DNA of 13,883 bases from an uncultured Eubacteriaceae bacterium. GTDB lineage: Bacteria; Bacillota; Clostridia; Lachnospirales; CAG-274. This document shows, piece after piece, positions 4,186-13,881 of this stretch (its first letter is position 1; each line of letters opens with the position of its first letter). The stretch is taken from positions 1 through 13,883 of the forward strand of contig CAMNCZ010000004.1 in the NCBI GenBank assembly GCA_946534775.1. The letters run 5' to 3'. The translations under genes and the position numbers were made by a program. Under the pieces are notes generated by a model that saw nothing but the letters and a program-made list of their open reading frames with translations, was not told the origin of the DNA and searched no databases.

Positions 4186-4377
4186 TAGGATGATGTAATG
4201 GAAGAAGCAATAGCCGCAGGCGTTGACAGTTTCCTTGCAAAGCCATTTATAATAGCAATGACAGCCAACGCTTTTGATGAAGATGTGCAAAAATCACTTC
4301 AGGCAGGTATGAACGCACATTTAAGCAAGCCCGTTGAACCCGACATTTTGTTTGACACACTCGCAAGTTTATTGTAA
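4186..4377 (+). pseudogene. Remnant of a second hybrid kinase: two receiver C-termini fused by deletion
   Basis: From 4189 the frame reads DDVMEEAIAAGVDSFLAKPF, which matches the region around Lys973 in REC1 of the upstream kinase (DDVADEAKKAGVDSFVPKPL). It then jumps directly to IIAMTANAFDEDVQKSLQAG and NAHLSKPVEPDILFDTLASL, which match the last 42 or so residues of REC2. The roughly 115 residues that should lie between are missing. The codon before DDV is TAG (4186-4188), where the upstream kinase has TGG for Trp. An ATG at 4198 could give a 59-residue peptide, but no good RBS precedes it. Codons differ widely from the neighbouring kinase, so the source is probably a diverged paralogue rather than a fresh copy. 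The fragment lacks both phospho-acceptor aspartates and is unlikely to be a working receiver. Confidence 0.8.
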
Positions 4378-4408: not shown

Positions 4409-6130
4409 ATGAAGGAAAATTTAATAAACATAAAAAACATACGCAGAAAAGTTCTTATAGTAGATGATGAGCCGATAAACCGCAGACTGCTCGGTTTTAT
4501 CGTTGACCGTGATTTTGACGTTATATATGCGGAAAACGGTATGCAGGCACTGGAAATTATAAAGGAAAACGAAAAGACACTTTCGCTTATACTGCTTGAT
4601 CTGCTTATGCCCGAAATGAACGGTTACGAACTTCTCAAACTTCTGCATACAGATCCCGAACTCAGAAGGATCCCCGTGATAGTACTTACATCGGAAAAAA
4701 GTGCCGAGGTTGAAAGTTTGCAGCTCGGTGCGGCGGATTTTATACCCAAGCCGTATGATATGCCCGAGGTAATACTTGCAAGAGTGCATCGTTCCATTGA
4801 ACTTGCAGAAGATAACATAATAATAAACGAAACCGAAAAGGACGGCCTTACGGGATTGTATACAAAAAGTTTTTTCTATCAATACGCAAAGCAGCACGAC
4901 CATTATTCGCCAAATCAAAAAATGGATGCGTTGGTGCTTAATGTAAACCGCTTTCATATTATAAACGAACTTTACGGAAGAGCCTACGGTGATATGGTGC
5001 TGCAAAAAATCGGTGAAAAGATATCAAACGTACTGGATGAGGTAGGGGGAATTGCCTGCCGCTGCGAATCGGATACATTTTTTATTTATATTCCTCACCG
5101 CGATGATTATGCCGAAAGTTTTACCGAAAATGCCGAACTTTTTGCTGCCGAACTTGAAAATCCACGCATAAATTTAAGGCTTGGCATATACGAAAACGCA
5201 GATAAGAGTACAGACATAGAACAGCGTTTTGACAAAGCAATGCTTGCCTGCAACAAACTGCGCGGCAGCCATACATTAAACACGGGCAATACATTCGGGG
5301 CTTATAAAACTTCTTACACTTATTACGATACTCAGCTTCACGAAAAAGAACTTTATTCCGAAAGACTGATAAGCGAAATGGACAAAGCCCTCGACGAAAA
5401 GCAATTTAAGGTGTTTTATCAGCCAAAATACAATATAAAAGGTGAAAAACCCGTACTTGTAAGCGCAGAGGCGCTTATACGCTGGGTGCATCCCGAACTT
5501 GGCACAATAAGCCCCGGTGCGTTTATTCCGCTTTTTGAAGGAAACGGCCTTATACACAAGCTTGACCGCTATGTATGGCGTTCCGCCGCCGAACAGATAA
5601 AAATATGGAAAGACAAATACGGAGTATCGGTTCCCGTATCGGTCAATGTTTCAAGAATAGATATATATGATCCGAACCTTGAAAACGAACTTTTGACCAT
5701 AGTAGCCGAAAACTCTCTCCAACCCTCAGAATATCTGCTTGAAATAACCGAATCGGCATATACGGATAATTCTCATCAGATAGTCGAAACGGTCAAAAAA
5801 CTTCGTGCGGACGGTTTCCGCGTGGAGATGGACGACTTCGGTTCGGGCTACTCGTCACTGAATATGCTTTCCGCACTGCCGATAGATGCGTTAAAGCTGG
5901 ATATGCAGTTTATTAAAAACATAGCGGAAAACAACAAAGACTACCGTATGGTAGAACTTATGGTGGATATTGCAAAATTCCTTTCCGTACCCGTTATTGC
6001 CGAGGGCGTGGAGACCGAACAGCAGTATATGCTGCTTAAACAGGCGGGTTGTGATATAATTCAGGGCTACTATTTTTCAAAGCCGATACCGCCCGAAGAA
6101 TTTAATTTGCTTATAGAAAACGAAAAATAA
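4409..6130 (+). CDS. Response regulator REC-GGDEF-EAL, probable cyclic-di-GMP phosphodiesterase
   Basis: A 573-residue protein. An N-terminal receiver (13-130) has the acidic pair Asp19/Asp20, phospho-acceptor Asp64, Thr94 and Lys114. A GGDEF-like domain (about 140-300) follows, but its signature loop reads ESDTF (220-224) instead of GGDEF, so cyclase activity is unlikely. The C-terminal EAL domain (about 318-570) keeps the catalytic set known for the family: Glu354 in EALIRW, Asn413, Glu445, Asp475-Asp476 in DDFGSGYSS, Lys496, Glu532 and Gln552. It should therefore hydrolyse cyclic-di-GMP, with the receiver and the dead GGDEF as likely control modules. AGAGG (4397-4401) lies 7 bases before the ATG. 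It is followed 14 bases later by an Hpt gene and preceded by a hybrid kinase, so it is a plausible end point of their phosphorelay. I saw no clear promoter of its own. Confidence 0.92.
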   Translation: MKENLINIKNIRRKVLIVDDEPINRRLLGFIVDRDFDVIYAENGMQALEIIKENEKTLSLILLDLLMPEMNGYELLKLLHTDPELRRIPVIVLTSEKSAEVESLQLGAADFIPKPYDMPEVILARVHRSIELAEDNIIINETEKDGLTGLYTKSFFYQYAKQHDHYSPNQKMDALVLNVNRFHIINELYGRAYGDMVLQKIGEKISNVLDEVGGIACRCESDTFFIYIPHRDDYAESFTENAELFAAELENPRINLRLGIYENADKSTDIEQRFDKAMLACNKLRGSHTLNTGNTFGAYKTSYTYYDTQLHEKELYSERLISEMDKALDEKQFKVFYQPKYNIKGEKPVLVSAEALIRWVHPELGTISPGAFIPLFEGNGLIHKLDRYVWRSAAEQIKIWKDKYGVSVPVSVNVSRIDIYDPNLENELLTIVAENSLQPSEYLLEITESAYTDNSHQIVETVKKLRADGFRVEMDDFGSGYSSLNMLSALPIDALKLDMQFIKNIAENNKDYRMVELMVDIAKFLSVPVIAEGVETEQQYMLLKQAGCDIIQGYYFSKPIPPEEFNLLIENEK

Positions 6131-6144
6131 AACGGAGGACAGTT

Positions 6145-6486
6145 ATGCTTACTATAGAAAAACTTAAAGAATACGGCGCAGATACCGATGACGGACTGAA
6201 ACGCTGTTTAAACAATGCAGATTTTTATATCAGGATGGTACAAAGTATTATACCCGATACAAGAATAGACGACCTTGCCAAGGCTATTGCGGCAAACGAT
6301 CTTGACAGTGCTTTTGATATAGCACACGCTTTAAAGGGAATATATGGCAACATTGCCATAACACCGATATATAAACCCGTATGCGAGATAACCGAACTTT
6401 TAAGAAACCGCACAAATACAGATTATTCCGCACTGTTGGAGGAAATTTCCGCCCAAAAACAAAAACTTGTTTCACTCTCCGAATAA
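6145..6486 (+). CDS. Hpt histidine phosphotransfer protein
   Basis: A 113-residue, mostly helical protein with the Hpt signature AHALKGIYGNI (60-70); His61 is the expected phosphorylated residue. Length fits a single four-helix Hpt domain. GGAGGA (6134-6139) lies 5 bases before the ATG and only 14 bases separate it from the EAL gene, so the two are probably cotranscribed. It likely carries phosphate from a receiver of the hybrid kinase at 773-4159 to the receiver of the REC-GGDEF-EAL protein. That route is inferred from gene order and from the kinase lacking an Hpt domain. After the TAA the same frame stays open for 41 more codons. Confidence 0.85.
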   Translation: MLTIEKLKEYGADTDDGLKRCLNNADFYIRMVQSIIPDTRIDDLAKAIAANDLDSAFDIAHALKGIYGNIAITPIYKPVCEITELLRNRTNTDYSALLEEISAQKQKLVSLSE

Positions 6487-7456: not shown

Positions 7457-8626
7457 TTACTTTTTATTATAAGTTACGCTGTCGCCGTAGATAGTGGTCC
7501 AGTCGTTTTTCATTGAAATAGGTATCCAGTTGAATTCCTCGCAGAGTGAATACATCTTGTCCGCCTTTTCAATATTGCCGTTTTCTCTTTCGGTATCATC
7601 GCAGCAAAGCATAAAAGCAAGGCTCTTGTAGGGGTTGTTGCTGATGGTGTACTCGGCCATACTTGAATCGCCCGTGCTGTTGCCAAAGGAAAGAACGGGG
7701 TGTACGCCTATCTCTTTAACAATAACGGAAACTTTGTTCATTTTAAGGTTTTTAACAATAAAGTCGCCGCCAAGTACGGGTACATCGTCGTTTGCAAATA
7801 CATAACTGAGACCGTCGTTTTCGCCCTGAGATTTTGCAACAACGCTTTCGTCGGAACCGATTATCTGAGGTATGGGAAGATCGGAAAGAGGTGAGTTGTC
7901 AAAGATACCTCTTACTATAAATCTGTCCGTACCGCTGACAATATAAACGGTAAAATCGTTTTTACGCAGATAGTCGATTACTTCAAGCATAGGCAGATAC
8001 CAACCGTCGCCGCGGTTCATACCTTCATAGCTTACCATAGGTTCTTTCTTGAATTCCTGAATATAATCGTTAAATTCTTCAAGCGTCATACCCGCAAAGG
8101 AAGATGCTATCGATTGACCGTGATCTATCTCAAGGCCCTTGAACGATTCGCCCGTTTCGTTTTGTTTAACTATCTTTTCCGCCGTTTCGCGCTCGTGGTC
8201 GGAGGCCTTGTCCTTATAGTCGGGGTCCTCAAGTACGCGGTGTACAAGCAGCATATAGTCAAAATAGTTGGGGTCTGTCTCGCAGAAAAGCGTACCGTCA
8301 AAATCAAATACCGCAACACGGTTTTCTACGGGGATAAAATCGGCATTGCTTTCGTCTGTGGCTGCCTCAACAAAGGATATAAGTTTTTCCTTTGCCTCGG
8401 AACCCTCGGTCCAGAGTGACAATATCGACTGACCGTCTATCGCCTCGACTGCCTGCGAAGCATCTTCGCCCGTCTTTCCCGCACTTGTCGTCACACGGCC
8501 TGCCTGCGCCGCCGTAGCGCTTGTTTCAAGCTTTGACATCTGTTTTGCGCCGACTATCAATACCACTACCAACGCACAAAGTGCGCCTATAGCGATGCCG
8601 CGCCATAAATTTACATTGTTTTTCAT
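7457..8626 (-). CDS. Membrane-anchored HAD-superfamily phosphatase
   Basis: A 389-residue protein with an N-terminal hydrophobic anchor (about 9-27) and no lipobox, then a low-complexity Ala/Thr linker, then a HAD domain. The motifs are in order: motif I VFDFDGTLF with nucleophile Asp108 and Asp110; motif II YIVSGTDRF with Ser231; Lys304 as the motif III lysine; motif IV GNSTGDSSM with Asp320. The spacing and the insert between motifs I and II resemble the phosphoserine-phosphatase-like C1 branch. The anchor suggests the catalytic domain faces outside the cell, which would suit scavenging of an extracellular phosphate ester; the substrate is unknown. AAAGAGGG (8640-8633) precedes the ATG by 6 bases. 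It lies 44 bases after an AIM24 pseudogene on the same strand and may be driven by that gene's surviving promoter. A strong terminator follows. Confidence 0.87.
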   Translation of the reverse strand: MKNNVNLWRGIAIGALCALVVVLIVGAKQMSKLETSATAAQAGRVTTSAGKTGEDASQAVEAIDGQSILSLWTEGSEAKEKLISFVEAATDESNADFIPVENRVAVFDFDGTLFCETDPNYFDYMLLVHRVLEDPDYKDKASDHERETAEKIVKQNETGESFKGLEIDHGQSIASSFAGMTLEEFNDYIQEFKKEPMVSYEGMNRGDGWYLPMLEVIDYLRKNDFTVYIVSGTDRFIVRGIFDNSPLSDLPIPQIIGSDESVVAKSQGENDGLSYVFANDDVPVLGGDFIVKNLKMNKVSVIVKEIGVHPVLSFGNSTGDSSMAEYTISNNPYKSLAFMLCCDDTERENGNIEKADKMYSLCEEFNWIPISMKNDWTTIYGDSVTYNKK

Positions 8627-9142: not shown

Positions 9143-10780
9143 ATGAATGTAAGAAGCAGTGTCAGTGATATTCCAAGGGCCGTGAAATATCTGGACAAGG
9201 AACTGACAGACAGGAAAATAAAATCAAAAGAACGGGTAAAAATGGTGCTTTCTGCGGAAGAAGCGCTGAATGTTCTTATTAAATATGCCAACAGCGAAGA
9301 TGATGATATAAGCATAAAGATAGTGTCTTTTTTAGGCGGAACAAGTATAAAATTAAGCTGTAAGGGTCAAAAATTTTCATCTGCCGAAATAGGTGAGGAG
9401 CTTATATATGATGACGATCCCGAGGCAAACGAAGTTATCGCAAAACTTAATGCCAATGTATTCAGTAAAAATACAGAGGTAAAAAATTCAAAAGGCAGAA
9501 ACTATGTTACCATACATAAAGAAAGAAAAAAGGCGGGACAGCTTAAATTAATGCTGGCTATGCTTTTTGCGGGCATATTTGCGGGCATAATTATGAAAGG
9601 CATTATCCCGCAAGGTATAAACGATGCGGTGATAAAATATTTTTTCTCGCCCGTTACAACAATGTTTTTGAACGCGCTTAAATTTGTGGCTGCGCCGCTG
9701 GTGTTTTTCTCGATAGCATCAAGCATAGCGAAGTTTGGCGATCTGAAAGCGCTTGGCCGTGTTGCGGCAAGGATAATGTCGGGGTATATGATCACATCGT
9801 TTATAGCCATTGTTATCGGCCTTGGCGTGTACAACGTTTTCCCCATAGGTGATACAGGCCTTCGGGCTGCCGTTACGGATGCGGCCGCAGTAACGTCGGA
9901 AACCGGCGAGGCGTTTAATGTTTCCGCGATCGATACCATAGTCGGCATTATCCCCACAAATATTATAGAACCGTTTTTGAAGGCAGATATGCTTAAAATT
10001 ATTTTTGTTGCCGTAATGACGGGTCTTGCGGTCGGTTCGCTCGGCGATAAGCTTGAAATATTCGGCAAGGTCATAAACGACGGTTATATGGTATTCTCAA
10101 AAATAACAACAATGATAATAGCATTTATGCCGCTTACCATATTCTGCTCAATGGCGGATATGGTCGTTTCGATGGAGTGGGAAAACCTGATGTCGGCATT
10201 TGCGTGGGTGCCCGTGGTATATGTGGGCGATATTATGATGCTTTTGTTCTATTCACTGGTATTGCTTATAGCTGCGCGGCTGTCTCCCTTTAAATTTTTT
10301 AAAAAATATCATCCCGCTATGTTTGCGGCTTTCAGCTTTGCATCAAGCAATGCGGCGCTGCCGTCATCTATGAATATATGTGGCGAAAAACTGGGTATAG
10401 ACAAAAAACTTTACTCATTTTCGCTGCCGCTCGGTGCTGCCATAAATATGGACGGCGGCTGCATAACGCAGATAATCAGCGTTTTGTTTATGGCAAAAGT
10501 TTTTGGCATACCTGCAAACGTTTCTGCCGTATTGTCGATGCTTCTGGCAATATTTGTGCTTTCCGTCGGTTCACCCGGTGTTCCGGGCGGTACGCTTGTG
10601 TGCATATCCATATTGCTGCCGCAGATAGGCATACCTGCCGAGGCGATAAGCATAATAATGGGTTTGTACCCTATAGTCGATATGATGCAGACTATGGTAA
10701 ATGTAACGGGTGACGGCGTAGTCACGACGGTTGCGGCAAAACAGGAAAATATGCTGGATATTGAAAAATTCGGCAGTTAA
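9143..10780 (+). CDS. SLC1/DAACS-type cation:amino-acid or dicarboxylate symporter with N-terminal RsbW-like domain
   Basis: A 545-residue protein in two parts. Residues about 135-540 form an SLC1 (GltP/DctA/SstT-type) secondary transporter with all landmark loops: HP1 with FASSNAALPSS (399-409), TM7 GAAINMDGG (431-439), HP2 VGSPGVPGG (475-483) and TM8 DMMQTMVNVTGDG (513-525). Residues 1-130 form a soluble domain that resembles an anti-sigma (RsbW/GHKL) ATPase: the N box is echoed by EEALNVLIKYA (39-49) and the later KGQKF by the DxGxxF region. The G1 aspartate and the glycine-rich G2 loop are missing, so ATP binding is doubtful. In GltPh the TM8 residues Asp394 and Arg397 contact substrate; here Asp513 is kept but Arg is replaced by Gln516, which argues against a simple glutamate/aspartate carrier. 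GAGGAGGA (9131-9138) precedes the ATG. The next gene follows after 19 bases. Confidence 0.85.
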   Translation: MNVRSSVSDIPRAVKYLDKELTDRKIKSKERVKMVLSAEEALNVLIKYANSEDDDISIKIVSFLGGTSIKLSCKGQKFSSAEIGEELIYDDDPEANEVIAKLNANVFSKNTEVKNSKGRNYVTIHKERKKAGQLKLMLAMLFAGIFAGIIMKGIIPQGINDAVIKYFFSPVTTMFLNALKFVAAPLVFFSIASSIAKFGDLKALGRVAARIMSGYMITSFIAIVIGLGVYNVFPIGDTGLRAAVTDAAAVTSETGEAFNVSAIDTIVGIIPTNIIEPFLKADMLKIIFVAVMTGLAVGSLGDKLEIFGKVINDGYMVFSKITTMIIAFMPLTIFCSMADMVVSMEWENLMSAFAWVPVVYVGDIMMLLFYSLVLLIAARLSPFKFFKKYHPAMFAAFSFASSNAALPSSMNICGEKLGIDKKLYSFSLPLGAAINMDGGCITQIISVLFMAKVFGIPANVSAVLSMLLAIFVLSVGSPGVPGGTLVCISILLPQIGIPAEAISIIMGLYPIVDMMQTMVNVTGDGVVTTVAAKQENMLDIEKFGS

Positions 10781-10799: not shown

Positions 10800-11453
10800 A
10801 TGAAAACGGATAAAAAAACGGGAAAAGCACTTTTGATCTTTCTTATTGCTGCGTCGGTCGTATTTGTGTTTTATATGTGCAATACGAAAAATGCCGCCGA
10901 AAATGGCTATACAACTATTGAACAGCTAAATAAAAGCGGTAAAAAGATAGGCGTTGAAACGGGTTCTACGGCTATGTTTGCCGTTGAAAAGGAACTGCCG
11001 AAAGCCGATATGCAGCAGTTTACGGATAAATATTCGGGCTATCTTGCCGTAAACGAGGGCAAAATAGATGCTTTTGCTTTTGAAAGGCTGCAAATGGAGT
11101 TGGCTATAAAAAATGGGCAGACGGGTGTAAGGCTGCTTGACAAATACTGCGCCAAAAACAAAATACCGTATTTATCCGCAAACCATATCCGCGCCGTTTT
11201 TGAGGAACTTTGCAGACAGATACTTATACCCGCGCTTGATACTGTCGATATAAAATTTACCGCCGATTATTCCGAAAAAGATATGCAGACCGAAATAACC
11301 GTGCTTTACGGCGGCGGTAAGTTCGACCCCGCCGATACGGAAAACGAACTTGCGCACAAAATACTTAAAGGAACGGCGGATAAAATGGAGTATGAGTATA
11401 CTCAAGGGGAAAGACCCAACAAAGTAACCGTGACAATAAAAAATAAAATATAA
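10800..11453 (+). CDS. Membrane-anchored solute-binding half-domain fused to an RsbW-like ATPase-like domain
   Basis: A 217-residue protein. I chose ATG 10800 because GGGGAG (10786-10791) lies 8 bases upstream; the open frame back to 10731 overlaps the symporter and has no RBS. Residues 10-26 are a hydrophobic anchor; the Cys27 context (FYMC) does not fit a lipobox. Residues 37-112 resemble lobe 2 of a family-3 solute-binding protein (TTIEQLNKSGKKIGVETGST, then NEGKIDAFAFERLQMELAIK); lobe 1 is absent. Residues 113-217 resemble a degenerate RsbW-type ATPase: FEELCRQILIPAL at the N box, LYGGGKFDP (169-177) where active proteins have a DxGxxFDP motif, and a closing beta segment PNKVTVTIKNK. A related domain starts the adjacent symporter, which suggests that the two proteins work together. 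A strong terminator follows. The family reading is by motif only. Confidence 0.7.
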   Translation: MKTDKKTGKALLIFLIAASVVFVFYMCNTKNAAENGYTTIEQLNKSGKKIGVETGSTAMFAVEKELPKADMQQFTDKYSGYLAVNEGKIDAFAFERLQMELAIKNGQTGVRLLDKYCAKNKIPYLSANHIRAVFEELCRQILIPALDTVDIKFTADYSEKDMQTEITVLYGGGKFDPADTENELAHKILKGTADKMEYEYTQGERPNKVTVTIKNKI

Positions 11454-11894: not shown

Positions 11895-12362
11895 ATGTCA
11901 GTAAAAATAAAAAAACTTATTGTCAGCATTGCTTTGCCGCTTGCCGTGGGCGGGGTGTCGGCCCTTGTGTCGCGCAGCGGTATGGAGGGATTTAACAGGG
12001 TAGTGCAGCCGCCGCTTTCGCCGCCGCAGTGGCTTTTCCCCGTTGTGTGGACCATTCTTTTTGTGCTTATGGGCATAGCAAGCTATCTTGTGTTTGAGGC
12101 AGCGAAAGACCCCGAGGAAAACAGCGCAATAACACTTTATATCGTGCAGCTTGCGGTAAATTTCTTCTGGCCCGTGTTTTTCTTCAGGCTTGGATTGTAT
12201 TATTTCGCGTTTTTGTGGCTGGTGCTTTTGTGGGTGCTTATACTGCTTACCGTTATAAAATTTCGCGAAATATCCAAAACGGCCGCTTGGCTTATGCTGC
12301 CTTACCTTGCGTGGGTCACGTTTGCGGGCTATCTTAATCTTGGGGTCGCACTGCTTAATTAA
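11895..12362 (+). CDS. tspO: TspO/MBR family membrane protein (tryptophan-rich sensory protein)
   Basis: A 155-residue protein, the usual TspO length, with five hydrophobic segments. Signature segments are PPLSPPQWLFPVVWTILFVL (39-58), the MGIASYLV that follows, QLAVNFFWPVFFF (85-97) and LPYLAWVTFAGYLNLGVALL (135-154), with the family's conserved Trp and Asn positions. TspO proteins bind porphyrins and other hydrophobic ligands in the membrane; the physiological role in anaerobic Firmicutes is unclear. I chose ATG 11895 because AGAGGTGA (11883-11890) precedes it; the in-frame ATG at 11772 would add 41 residues without an RBS and overlap the divergent promoter. A TATAAT at 11871-11876 is a possible -10, but no convincing -35 is visible. 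It is convergent with tetR, and no clear terminator was seen in 12363-12449. Confidence 0.9.
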   Translation: MSVKIKKLIVSIALPLAVGGVSALVSRSGMEGFNRVVQPPLSPPQWLFPVVWTILFVLMGIASYLVFEAAKDPEENSAITLYIVQLAVNFFWPVFFFRLGLYYFAFLWLVLLWVLILLTVIKFREISKTAAWLMLPYLAWVTFAGYLNLGVALLN

Positions 12363-12449: not shown

Positions 12450-13034
12450 TTATGTAAAAAATGAATTTTCAGAGGTGACTTTAAGCAGGTTTTCGTCAAG
12501 CCTTGATATGGTTTTAATGATAAACTCACGGTCCTCTTTAAAGTCCGACAATACCCAGCGGGATATTACCGCAAGACAGCCCTGCGCGCGGTAGATGCCT
12601 GTATATTCCAGGTCTTTGTTGTGTATATCCGTTGCCTGCTTTTCGCTTTCTATCTGGCGGAAAAGGCCTTCCGTCATTTTGCTGAGCTTGCCGTACATAA
12701 GCCCCGAGGCGTTTGTGGAGAATACCATTTTGAATATGCTGCGGTTATCCGAGATATATTCCGTCAATTTGTCGAAAAACTCCTGCGGCGGCAGTTCCTC
12801 AAGTTTCAGCATCAAAAGCCCGAGTTCCACAAGTATCTCGGACTCGGTCTTGTCATAAAGGTCGTATACATCAAGAAAATGCTTGTAGAATGTAACACGG
12901 TTCACATCCGCCCTGTCGGTTATCTCACGAACGGTTATTTTGTGCAGTTCCTTCTCCATAAGAAGTTCGGCAAGCGCATTGCAAAGGGCTTTTCTGGTTT
13001 TTGCCGTGCGTCGGTCGGGCTTTTTTTCATTCAT
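12450..13034 (-). CDS. TetR/AcrR family transcriptional regulator
   Basis: A 194-residue protein with an N-terminal TetR DNA-binding domain: a basic first helix (RRTAKTRKALCNALAELL, 8-25), then the helix-turn-helix KITVREITDRADVNRVTFYK (32-51) ending in the family's typical FYKHF. The C-terminal part (about 65-194) is helical and resembles the generic TetR C-terminal dimerisation/ligand domain of DhaS-like Firmicutes members; the ligand is unknown. The RBS is weak (GCGAGATG before the ATG). It is divergent from two double-glycine leader genes, and the spacer holds a long inverted repeat, so control of those genes and of itself is likely. That is inferred from layout only. Confidence 0.88.
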   Translation of the reverse strand: MNEKKPDRRTAKTRKALCNALAELLMEKELHKITVREITDRADVNRVTFYKHFLDVYDLYDKTESEILVELGLLMLKLEELPPQEFFDKLTEYISDNRSIFKMVFSTNASGLMYGKLSKMTEGLFRQIESEKQATDIHNKDLEYTGIYRAQGCLAVISRWVLSDFKEDREFIIKTISRLDENLLKVTSENSFFT

Positions 13035-13178: not shown

Positions 13179-13207
13179 TTGAATAATTGAGGGATATTTA
13201 TTATAAT
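13179..13207 (+). promoter_or_regulatory. Promoter of the double-glycine leader gene pair
   Basis: -35 TTGAAT (13179-13184), exactly 17 bases, -10 TATAAT (13202-13207), about 62 bases before the first ATG. Confidence 0.7.
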
Positions 13208-13269: not shown

Positions 13270-13539
13270 ATGAAACTTAAATTGGAAAATCGTATTGATG
13301 ACGATATTTTAAAACATATATCGGGCGGTACACTGGAGGTGTCGCACGAAACTTCGGCAGATGAGATGGAGCATTTTGCGGCGCCCAGGACAACTTGTCC
13401 TATATGCGGCGGCACGACGCTGGATTATAAGTTTTTCGTGCTTGGGGATAACTCCCACAGCCGTATGGGTCAAAAATGCCTTAAAGACGGCTGCGGCTAT
13501 TCGTGGACATTCGGCGCAACGCTTGAATATGAGGCTTAA
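13270..13539 (+). CDS. Small protein with double-glycine leader and Cys4 zinc-ribbon-like core (copy 1)
   Basis: An 89-residue protein. The N-terminus MKLKLENRIDDDILKHISGG has the pattern of a double-glycine bacteriocin/pheromone leader: acidic and hydrophobic positions before Ile-Ser-Gly-Gly at 17-20, where C39-type peptidase-transporters cut in known systems. The rest carries CPIC (43-46), Cys70 and Cys75 followed by GYSWTFG, a layout like a zinc ribbon. AAAGGAG (13255-13261) lies 8 bases before the ATG. A paralogue with the same plan begins 27 bases after its stop codon. It could be an exported peptide precursor or a small protein with a leader-like N-terminus; no transporter or modifying enzyme is in the window to decide. 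Confidence 0.75.
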   Translation: MKLKLENRIDDDILKHISGGTLEVSHETSADEMEHFAAPRTTCPICGGTTLDYKFFVLGDNSHSRMGQKCLKDGCGYSWTFGATLEYEA

Positions 13540-13566
13540 AAAACTATTTGAGAAAGGGTGGTTTAT

Positions 13567-13821
13567 ATGGATGCAAATAAAAAATTAAGCACTGAAGAAC
13601 TGAAAAACATAACGGGCGGCAATACAGCCAAAGGTTCAGAGATAATCGGTATAATCGGTATGGAAAACTATGATACGGAGCAGAAAAAATGCCCCAAATG
13701 TCAGGGTACAAAGCTTATGTACAGAACATTTATCGCTGATGACGGCAAAACAACAAAGATAGGTCAGATATGCGAATGCGGCTATGCTTGGACTATCGGC
13801 AACAAAACAGGTGAATTATAA
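13567..13821 (+). CDS. Small protein with double-glycine leader and Cys4 zinc-ribbon-like core (copy 2)
   Basis: An 84-residue paralogue of the upstream gene. ATG 13567 is preferred over the in-frame GTG at 13558 because AAAGGG (13553-13558) then stands 8 bases upstream. The leader KLSTEELKNITGG (6-18) is a textbook match to the LSxxEL-x-x-I-x-GG pattern of double-glycine leaders. The core has CPKC (42-45), Cys69 and Cys71 and then GYAWTIG. The distance between the first Cys pair and the third Cys is 24 residues in both copies, while the last pair is spaced differently (CxC here, CxxxxC in copy 1). A hairpin terminator begins 9 bases after the stop. It is probably cotranscribed with copy 1. 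Confidence 0.78.
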   Translation: MDANKKLSTEELKNITGGNTAKGSEIIGIIGMENYDTEQKKCPKCQGTKLMYRTFIADDGKTTKIGQICECGYAWTIGNKTGEL

Positions 13822-13829
13822 AAGAGTGT

Positions 13830-13881
13830 AGGGGCTGTCGCATTAAGATTTTTTACAAAAATCAGCGAATAAGCCCCTTTT
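13830..13881 (+). terminator. Long imperfect hairpin ending in a T tract
   Basis: Three nested stems: AGGGGCT/AGCCCCT (13830-13836 with 13872-13878), TCGC/GCGA (13838-13841 with 13865-13868) and GATTTTT/AAAAATC (13847-13853 with 13857-13863), then TTT. It follows the stop codon of the second leader-peptide gene by 8 bases, so a terminator is the simplest reading. The GGGGCTGTCGCATTAAG edge also looks like the end of a mobile or miniature repeat, and the window stops just after it. Confidence 0.6.

What the first reader, a model, noticed from the sequence alone, without database searches (positions are those of the whole stretch)
13270..13821. Tandem double-glycine leader peptides with zinc-ribbon-like cores
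Seen: two adjacent small genes each start with a leader ending in GG (LKHISGG and LKNITGG) and continue into a core with CPxC, 24 residues to a third Cys, a fourth Cys, then GYxWTxG. Known: leaders of this type are normally cut by C39 peptidase-ABC exporters and precede bacteriocins or signalling peptides. A Cys4 metal-ribbon core behind such a leader is not a bacteriocin class I recognise. Inference: this may be an uncharacterised family of exported metal-binding or disulfide peptides, paired as two components. They are under a strong promoter beside a TetR gene.
Basis: partly seen in the sequence, partly recalled or inferred. Interest (0 to 1): 0.78.

Follow-up and report, generated by a model that had tools for sequence, protein, structure and literature searches.

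The report
Exported zinc-ribbon peptide pair
Two small neighbouring genes in an uncultured gut-type bacterium seem to make short proteins that a known kind of peptide exporter cuts and ships out of the cell, but what is shipped looks like a small zinc-binding ribbon rather than a familiar bacteriocin, and related bacteria carry dozens of variants.

Summary
Both genes are real: A 13270-13539, B 13567-13821. Each has an 18-20 residue double-glycine leader, then a 66-69 residue Cys4 core. With homologues from seven same-family genomes there are 24 members: GG in 24 of 24, hydrophobic -4, -7 and -12 in 24 of 24, the positions that sit in pockets of the solved C39 protease LahT (PMC6363468). The window's genome has one C39 exporter, NHLM-type, its protease domain matching LahT at E 7.6e-72 with the triad kept. 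In relatives it is encoded beside such peptides; the same-genus genome without peptides has no C39 domain. Cores resemble TFIIS/RPB9/NrdR-type zinc ribbons (Foldseek not significant). In another family Nif11-like leaders precede variable ribbons (25 of 29 leader-only hits read), with one C39 domain per genome and a radical SAM/SPASM enzyme that nine window-family genomes do not show. Best reading: C39-matured, exported zinc-ribbon microproteins, probably unmodified here, acting outside the cell; role open. The one precedent found is pamtide type II precursors. A new variant of GG-leader exported peptides; export, zinc and activity are untested at the bench.

The parts
13270..13539 (+). Gene A: GG-leader zinc-ribbon peptide precursor, 89 aa
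   Evidence: ORF; 83% (G004) and 74% (G002) identical relatives; pN below pS
13270..13329 (+). Leader of A (residues 1-20), predicted C39 cut after GG
   Evidence: GG and hydrophobic -4, -7, -12 in 24 of 24 members
13330..13536 (+). Core of A (69 aa, charge about -5.4), predicted zinc ribbon
13567..13821 (+). Gene B: GG-leader zinc-ribbon peptide precursor, 84 aa
   Evidence: ORF; 56% (G002), 53% (G004) identical relatives; TIGR01847 leader model 15.8 bits, cut-off 15.7
13567..13620 (+). Leader of B (residues 1-18), predicted C39 cut after GG
13621..13818 (+). Core of B (66 aa, charge about +0.7), predicted zinc ribbon
13179..13207 (+). Promoter-like site ahead of A (10 of 12 matches)
   Evidence: not above shuffled expectation
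4409..6130 (+). Receiver-GGDEF-EAL protein; homologue directly upstream of HlyD-ABC1-ABC2-peptide in G028
   Evidence: association in relatives, role here inferred
6145..6486 (+). Hpt-domain protein; homologue in the same G028 locus
7457..8626 (-). HAD-like protein; 71% identical homologue in the G004 A-B locus
11895..12362 (+). TspO-family gene; 62% identical homologue beside the G001 exporter locus

Best explanation
A and B are precursors of secreted zinc-ribbon microproteins. SHOWN BY COMPUTATION: a short leader with the C39 recognition register ends in GG; the only C39 protein found in the own genome is an NHLM-type peptidase-ABC exporter (contig C100) of the LahT kind; members of the family share operons with this exporter in relatives, and both are missing in G003. 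INFERRED: the exporter binds the leader helix (-12, -7, -4), cuts after GG and exports a 66-69 residue core; the core binds one Zn through Cys4 (Cys3His in three members); the peptide is not modified, since no match to the radical SAM/SPASM enzyme of related systems was found in nine window-family genomes; expression answers to the SpoIIE-phosphatase/RsbW-like/STAS partner-switching genes found with the exporter in relatives. MOST LIKELY ROLE, weakly supported: secreted effectors, antagonistic (bacteriocin-like, about 40%) or communicative/cell-surface (about 35%), with A and B doing different jobs, since A of the window's close relatives is acidic and more conserved and B near neutral and faster evolving.
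For: Leader: GG 24/24; hydrophobic -4, -7, -12 24/24, and 19/24 at -16, against 0-6 of 24 at the other positions. [quoted passage not shown] Exporter: one PF03412 hit in the own genome; TIGR03796 911 bits over a cut-off of 853; TIGR03797 756 over 709; C39 domain against LahT 6mpz E 7.6e-72, triad residues at the same numbers. Linkage: 12 of 24 members, in 8 of 17 loci, lie beside exporter or SpoIIE/RsbW/STAS genes. Co-occurrence: 7 of 97 genomes have peptides at E <= 0.01, 13 of 97 have ABC1 over cut-off, all 7 are among the 13 (1.3e-7 if kinship is ignored); G003 has neither. Ribbon: both CxxC Cys, a Gln and the third Cys invariant in 23 aligned rows; profile match to RPA12 E 2.4e-4; AlphaFold2 cores with block means of 80-91 (B) and 83-89 (A, last block 73); Foldseek's first 9 (B) and first 13 (A) rows are NrdR or RNA-polymerase zinc ribbons; three members have a displaced His instead of Cys 4. 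Other leader types carry the same kind of core.
Against: The window holds no exporter; the contig ends 62 bases after B. 12 of 24 members, the window's two included, have no system gene near them (some on short contigs). 6 of the 13 genomes with ABC1 over cut-off have no member at E <= 0.01, so the exporter type also serves other peptides. Foldseek matches are not significant (best E 0.063 for B, 0.019 for A), and AlphaFold2 means are modest (68.7 and 70.8, pTM about 0.5). The top sequence rows are designed C2H2 zinc-finger proteins matched in several weak stretches. No Pfam family reaches its cut-off for either peptide, no NCBIfam family matches A. Mature charges (A -5.4, B +0.7) do not suggest a cationic bacteriocin, and I recognised no immunity gene. 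The own genome is 70.6% complete, so counts there are lower bounds.
Confidence: 0.74

Rival explanations
1. The cysteines are not zinc ligands but donors for thioether or disulfide bridges: these are RiPP-type precursors, as the radical SAM/SPASM enzyme beside related peptides suggests.
For: A SPASM radical SAM enzyme lies in the NHLM operon of G386 near a ribbon peptide and directly beside ribbon peptides in G151 (partial at a contig edge) and G313. Leaders there resemble Nif11 RiPP leaders, below cut-off.
Against: No match to that enzyme at E <= 1e-10 in 9 window-family genomes, nor in G365, which also has ribbon peptides (other radical SAM families were not searched). CPxCG knuckles, Cys-to-His changes and TFIIS/RPB9/NrdR-type matches fit zinc better.
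Confidence: 0.18
2. The mature peptides are pheromones: exported, then sensed by the SpoIIE-type phosphatase with a 5TM-LYT or Cache sensor part encoded next to them, which switches the RsbW/STAS module. Compatible with export and zinc; it rivals only the antagonist role.
For: Peptide, sensor phosphatase, RsbW-like kinase, exporter and STAS form one operon in G002; A-B precedes the phosphatase in G004 (two loci) and G005.
Against: No receptor-peptide co-variation was tested; 66-69 residues is long for a pheromone (recalled); many members lie away from the phosphatase.
Confidence: 0.3
3. The cores are metal scavengers or zinc buffers released outside the cell.
For: Predicted Cys4 metal site.
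Against: A structural ribbon holds zinc for folding, not uptake (recalled); I recognised no zinc uptake gene or zinc repressor among the neighbouring genes listed (not searched by profile); dozens of variable cores in g116 do not suggest a metallophore.
Confidence: 0.1
4. They are ordinary cytosolic zinc ribbons and the GG is incidental.
For: Weak similarity to transcription ribbons.
Against: GG 24/24 in register with -4, -7, -12; shared operons with a C39 exporter; leader also found with other cores in the same genus.
Confidence: 0.04

Closest known systems
NHLM/NHLP export system (TIGR03796, TIGR03797, TIGR03794) with NHLP and Nif11 precursors (Haft et al. 2010, PMC2887384, passages read)
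   Same: Same peptidase-ABC and ABC pair, both over curated cut-off; Gly-Gly cleavage; several precursors per genome, some encoded away from the exporter; conserved leader and variable core in the f6 relatives.
   Different: The window peptides have a short leader with no match to the NHLP or Nif11 models; in G002 the HlyD piece is 74 aa and matches 45 of 421 positions, below cut-off, and the own genome has a like-sized ORF; no TOMM or LanM enzyme recognised by eye in the loci; the core is ribbon-like, not a low-complexity Cys/Ser/Thr tail.
LahT and Lah precursors of Lachnospiraceae C6A11 (PMC6363468, passages read)
   Same: C39 domain of the own-genome exporter aligns without gaps to LahT, triad kept; same leader contact positions.
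   Different: Lah precursors come from a lanthipeptide operon with Nif11-type leaders; here no lanthipeptide enzyme was recognised and the leader is short.
Class II double-glycine bacteriocins (TIGR01847 leaders)
   Same: Leader type; B just reaches the leader model (15.8 bits, cut-off 15.7).
   Different: A does not match; core has a Cys4 ribbon, little or negative charge; no activity known, no immunity gene recognised.
Type II pamtide precursors (PMC10787088, one passage read)
   Same: A zinc ribbon in a precursor-peptide gene.
   Different: DnaJ-type CxxCxGxG ribbon with a central Asp, paired with a PAMT methyltransferase; here a TFIIS-like CPxC...CxxC ribbon behind a GG leader.
TFIIS/RPB9/RPC10 and NrdR zinc ribbons
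   Same: Cys4 spacing and three-stranded core in profile and structure comparisons.
   Different: Those are parts of intracellular transcription proteins; these sit behind export leaders and reach no Pfam cut-off.

Membership tests
C39 (double-glycine) exporter substrates | Leader ending GG with hydrophobic -4, -7, -12 | tested here: met
   24 of 24 members; register from PMC6363468
C39 (double-glycine) exporter substrates | C39 exporter in the genome | tested here: met
   one in the own genome; 1-3 in each of 7 relatives with peptides
C39 (double-glycine) exporter substrates | Cleavage after GG and export | not testable with these tools
   needs protease assay or supernatant mass spectrometry
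NHLM/NHLP export system | ABC1 and ABC2 over curated cut-off | tested here: met
   own genome: 911 bits and 756 bits
NHLM/NHLP export system | Full HlyD-like fusion protein (TIGR03794) | tested here: not met
   G002 copy: 74 aa, 45 of 421 positions, 36.6 bits under 156.2; own genome 74-aa ORF seen but not scanned
NHLP or Nif11 precursors | TIGR03793 or TIGR03798 leader | tested here: not met
   no hit for A or B; f6 peptides 20.7-24.2 bits under a cut-off of 32.3
Class II bacteriocins | Leader model TIGR01847 | tested here: inconclusive
   B 15.8 over 15.7; A no hit
Class II bacteriocins | Antimicrobial activity and immunity | not testable with these tools
   none recognised by eye in the loci; activity needs an assay
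RiPP precursors | Modifying enzyme with the precursor | tested here: inconclusive
   the f6 radical SAM/SPASM enzyme has no match in 9 window-family genomes; other enzyme families were not searched
TFIIS/RPB9-type zinc ribbon | Two zinc knuckles at ribbon spacing | tested here: met
   CxxC 24/24 (CPxC 23/24); third Cys 24/24; fourth ligand Cys 21/24, displaced His 3/24
TFIIS/RPB9-type zinc ribbon | Fold and Pfam cut-off | tested here: inconclusive
   AlphaFold2 cores; Foldseek tops are ribbons but E 0.019 or worse; PF01096 14.4 bits under 21 for B; RPA12 E 2.4e-4
Type II pamtides | CxxCxGxG DnaJ-type ribbon with central Asp | tested here: not met
   alignment A1 held against the motif printed in PMC10787088
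Type II pamtides | Adjacent PAMT methyltransferase | not tested
   no search for it was made

The most novel reading that the evidence does not exclude
Clostridia of one order export a whole class of zinc-ribbon microproteins. At least three leader types (short class II-like, the Nif11-like f6 type, the f19 type) have been joined to zinc-ribbon cores. One genus (g116) keeps more than 30 ribbon precursors over two genomes with one C39 domain per genome and a radical SAM/SPASM enzyme; the window's lineage shows no such enzyme and exports plain zinc ribbons under partner-switching control. The ribbon would be a stable scaffold on which secreted binding surfaces are diversified.
Probability: 0.55. 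Interest if true: 0.85.

Novelty: new variant of a known kind. Interest (0 to 1): 0.72.

Why it matters
Zinc ribbons are known mainly as parts of intracellular transcription and nucleic-acid machinery (recalled). Finding them repeatedly behind C39 export leaders, in dozens of variants with one near-fixed leader in one genus, points to a class of secreted microproteins that standard annotation misses: A and B reach no Pfam cut-off, and only B reaches a generic leader model. It gives a directly testable set: a LahT-like protease, clear cut sites, a predicted metal site, and a contrast between lineages with and without a radical SAM enzyme that could show how a modified peptide becomes an unmodified one, or the reverse.

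Tried and rejected
TetR partnership: no homologue of 12450-13034 at E <= 1e-8 among the genes called in the loci held, so dropped. Strong promoter: not above shuffles. Phage or plasmid link: no match for B in phages or for one f6 peptide in plasmids; other combinations were not tried. Nif11 membership of A and B: no hit. dN/dS: synonymous sites are saturated in several pairs, so only pS and pN are quoted. The co-occurrence value ignores kinship.

Counts and dropped rows: order search, 23 of 392 genomes at E <= 0.001; 8 are the core set with 27 matches, 3 of which (G001:C6, G002:C10, G004:C40) are GG peptides without a ribbon and were dropped, leaving the 24. Of the other 15 genomes I fetched only G151, G258, G365 and G386; the rest, mostly near E 1e-3, were not examined. 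L037's member is cut by a contig end and was left out of A1 and A6. One search classified 29 of 39 leader-only hits in G258 and G386 (10 had no locus); of its 4 non-ribbon rows one is cut by a contig end, one has no GG, two are GG peptides without ribbon. The 34 of 38 is biased, since part of its loci were fetched for their cores. G124 peptides were not classed as ribbons. A class-wide draw of 391 genomes gave no match at E <= 1e-4 except in the own genome, so this exact family looks narrow (two genera of one family). Neighbourhood genes come from a simple caller of mine; starts may be off and short genes missed (it missed the 74-aa HlyD ORF of contig C100 that one search lists). Neighbours not sent to Pfam or NCBIfam are named by eye or by BLAST likeness.

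Literature: ten searches of an open-licence PMC library only; 'Nif11' with 'zinc ribbon' 0 papers, zinc-bacteriocin phrases 0 papers. Papers seen as passages: PMC6363468, PMC2887384, PMC10787088, PMC9200625 (the last only to exclude it); the rest as listings with the start of the abstract.

Full report
What is there. Two adjacent plus-strand genes close the window: A (13270-13539, 89 aa) and B (13567-13821, 84 aa). Both begin with an 18-20 residue leader ending in GG and continue into a core with CPxC, 23 residues, a third Cys, a fourth Cys and GYxWTxG. Chance is made unlikely by a shuffle test (2 of 29 window ORFs against 0 of 4859 shuffled ones) and by homologues.

The source. The window is the whole of contig C4 of a fragmented genome (1.77 Mb, 369 contigs, 70.6% complete). 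The contig ends just after a 33-base stretch that recurs once in the genome, 17 bases from where the C137 locus stops, so the downstream genes were probably lost at an assembly repeat.

The family. A profile search of the fetched regions gave 24 members in eight genomes of two genera, own genome included. A whole-genome search of 392 same-order genomes agrees: 27 matches in those eight, 3 of them GG peptides without a ribbon. GG is present in 24 of 24. Positions -4, -7 and -12 are hydrophobic in 24 of 24 and -16 in 19 of 24; the other leader positions in 0 to 6 of 24. CxxC is 24 of 24 and CPxC 23 of 24; the fourth ligand is Cys in 21 and a displaced His (GHQW or GHSW) in 3. A genes are more conserved (74-83% between window, G002 and G004) than B genes (51-57% to the window's), with pN well below pS in A.

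The exporter. The own genome has one C39 peptidase domain, in an NHLM-type ABC1 on contig C100, next to an NHLM ABC2, a STAS protein, a 195-aa protein and a 74-aa HlyD-like ORF. Its first 150 residues match the solved double-glycine protease LahT (6mpz) at E 7.6e-72 without gaps, Cys27, His101 and Asp117 kept. [quoted passage not shown] These are the three positions that never vary in kind here.

The link. In G002 one operon-like run holds A, a Cu_amine_oxidN1-domain protein, B, a SpoIIE-type phosphatase with a 5TM-LYT sensor, an RsbW-like kinase, short HlyD, ABC1, an ABC2-like gene, STAS and a 195-aa protein. In G001, G014, G021 and G028 a member lies directly beside an ABC2-like gene (named by likeness). 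In G004 (two loci) and G005 the A-B pair precedes a SpoIIE-type phosphatase. In all, 12 of 24 members (8 of 17 loci) lie beside system genes; the other 12, the window's two among them, do not, some of them on short contigs. Of 97 relatives, 7 have peptides at E <= 0.01 and 13 have ABC1 over its cut-off; all 7 are among the 13 (1.3e-7 ignoring kinship). G003, the same-genus genome without peptides, has no C39 domain; G004, G005, G014, G021 and G028 have one each, G001 two (one a 45-position fragment) and G002 three. Other window genes have homologues in these neighbourhoods: 4409-6130 and 6145-6486 directly upstream of the exporter genes in G028, 7457-8626 in the G004 A-B locus, TspO in the G001 exporter locus.

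The core. A profile of the cores matches TFIIS-type zinc ribbons of RNA polymerase subunits (RPA12 E 2.4e-4; RPC10 0.029); the top row, E 3.1e-7, and a third are designed C2H2 zinc-finger proteins matched in several weak stretches. AlphaFold2 gives confident beta-strand cores and low-confidence leaders for both peptides (whole-chain means 68.7 and 70.8). Foldseek's first rows are NrdR or polymerase ribbons, none significant (best E 0.063 for B, 0.019 for A). The Cys-to-His changes favour metal over disulfide. Mature A of the window, G002 and G004 has charge -5.4, the other A-type cores -2.5 to +2.0, and the 17 other cores -1.6 to +2.7, so the pair does not look like classical cationic bacteriocins.

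A wider class. In family f6 of the same order, two genomes of genus g116 carry Nif11-like leaders (best 24.2 bits under a cut-off of 32.3) followed by ribbon cores: 25 of the 29 leader-only hits that could be read (39 in all), and 34 of 38 distinct precursors found with a leader pattern (biased, since part of the loci were fetched for their cores, and some are orthologues between the two genomes). In 15 of them leader identity averages 81% and core identity 31%, or 22% without the conserved Cys columns. This profile matches the A/B profile (97.5%, E 7.5e-12, over the last leader residues and the core) and the same kind of solved ribbons. G151, G258, G365 and G386 have one C39 domain each; in G386 it stands in an NHLM operon near a ribbon peptide. 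That operon also holds a radical SAM/SPASM enzyme. Matches to it at E <= 1e-10 occur in 7 of 17 genomes searched, beside ribbon peptides in G151 (partial, contig edge) and G313; none occurs in the nine window-family genomes or in G365, which has short-leader ribbon peptides. So the f6 peptides may be modified, and the window's probably are not by this enzyme. A class-wide draw found no A/B-type member outside the own genome in 391 genomes.

Interpretation. The best reading is a pair of exported, C39-matured zinc-ribbon microproteins. Cut site, exporter and ribbon rest on sequence comparison and structure prediction; export, metal and activity are inferred. The role is open: the sensor phosphatase next door favours regulation or signalling, the paralogous, variable cores favour antagonism. 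GG-leader peptides with other cores in the same genus (L039, L077-L079) suggest that the leader is modular.

Known and new. Exporter, protease and leader are known kinds; zinc ribbons are a known fold. Their combination was not found in ten searches of an open-licence PMC library, except for the different, DnaJ-type ribbon of type II pamtide precursors (PMC10787088, one passage). I class it as a new variant of a known kind.

Noticed in passing
L081:5703-7100 (G386), L082:83-1057 (G151), L157 (G313): A radical SAM/SPASM enzyme, below the curated cut-off of the full-length models shown by NCBIfam, accompanies GG-leader zinc-ribbon peptides; no match in nine window-family genomes.
   Followed up: partly
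L080, L081, L083, L086, L087 (G386, G258): Arrays and scattered copies of Nif11-like-leader peptides with one near-fixed leader and variable ribbon cores, one C39 domain per genome.
   Followed up: partly
L131:1303-2146 (G313), L129:1039-2078 (G230), L084:6942-7166 and L085:7276-7509 (G365): Further GG-leader peptides with CxxC...CxxC cores behind other leader types.
   Followed up: partly
L039:11901-12077, L077:3862-4032, L078:6087-6308, L079:6328-6501: GG-leader peptides with Cys-poor cores in the window's genus; those in L078 and L079 lie beside giant ORFs (at least 1923 and 2143 aa).
   Followed up: no
L050:1691-5026 (G085): Ten tandem GG-leader peptides, most with another Cys pattern (C..C.C....WH), upstream of an NHLM ABC1.
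   Followed up: no
L027:9560-10627, L030:5442-6497: A RelA/SpoT-domain gene in the A-B locus of G004, with a 69% identical homologue in that of G005.
   Followed up: no
window 9143-10780: Sodium:dicarboxylate symporter with about 137 residues ahead of the Pfam match (138-533); by eye they resemble an anti-sigma-type ATPase, untested.
   Followed up: no
window 10800-11453: 217-aa protein without a Pfam match at E <= 0.001.
   Followed up: no
window 13831-13863: 33-base stretch near the contig end, found once more near the end of the C137 locus: probably a dispersed repeat that broke the assembly.
   Followed up: partly
L026:12965-13189 and like ORFs in L025, L037, L040, L042, L043: The HlyD-like subunit of these exporters is cut down to 74-75 aa, one membrane segment by eye.
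   Followed up: partly
window 4198-4377: Short ORF resembling a response-regulator receiver, directly after the hybrid kinase gene; perhaps a remnant.
   Followed up: no
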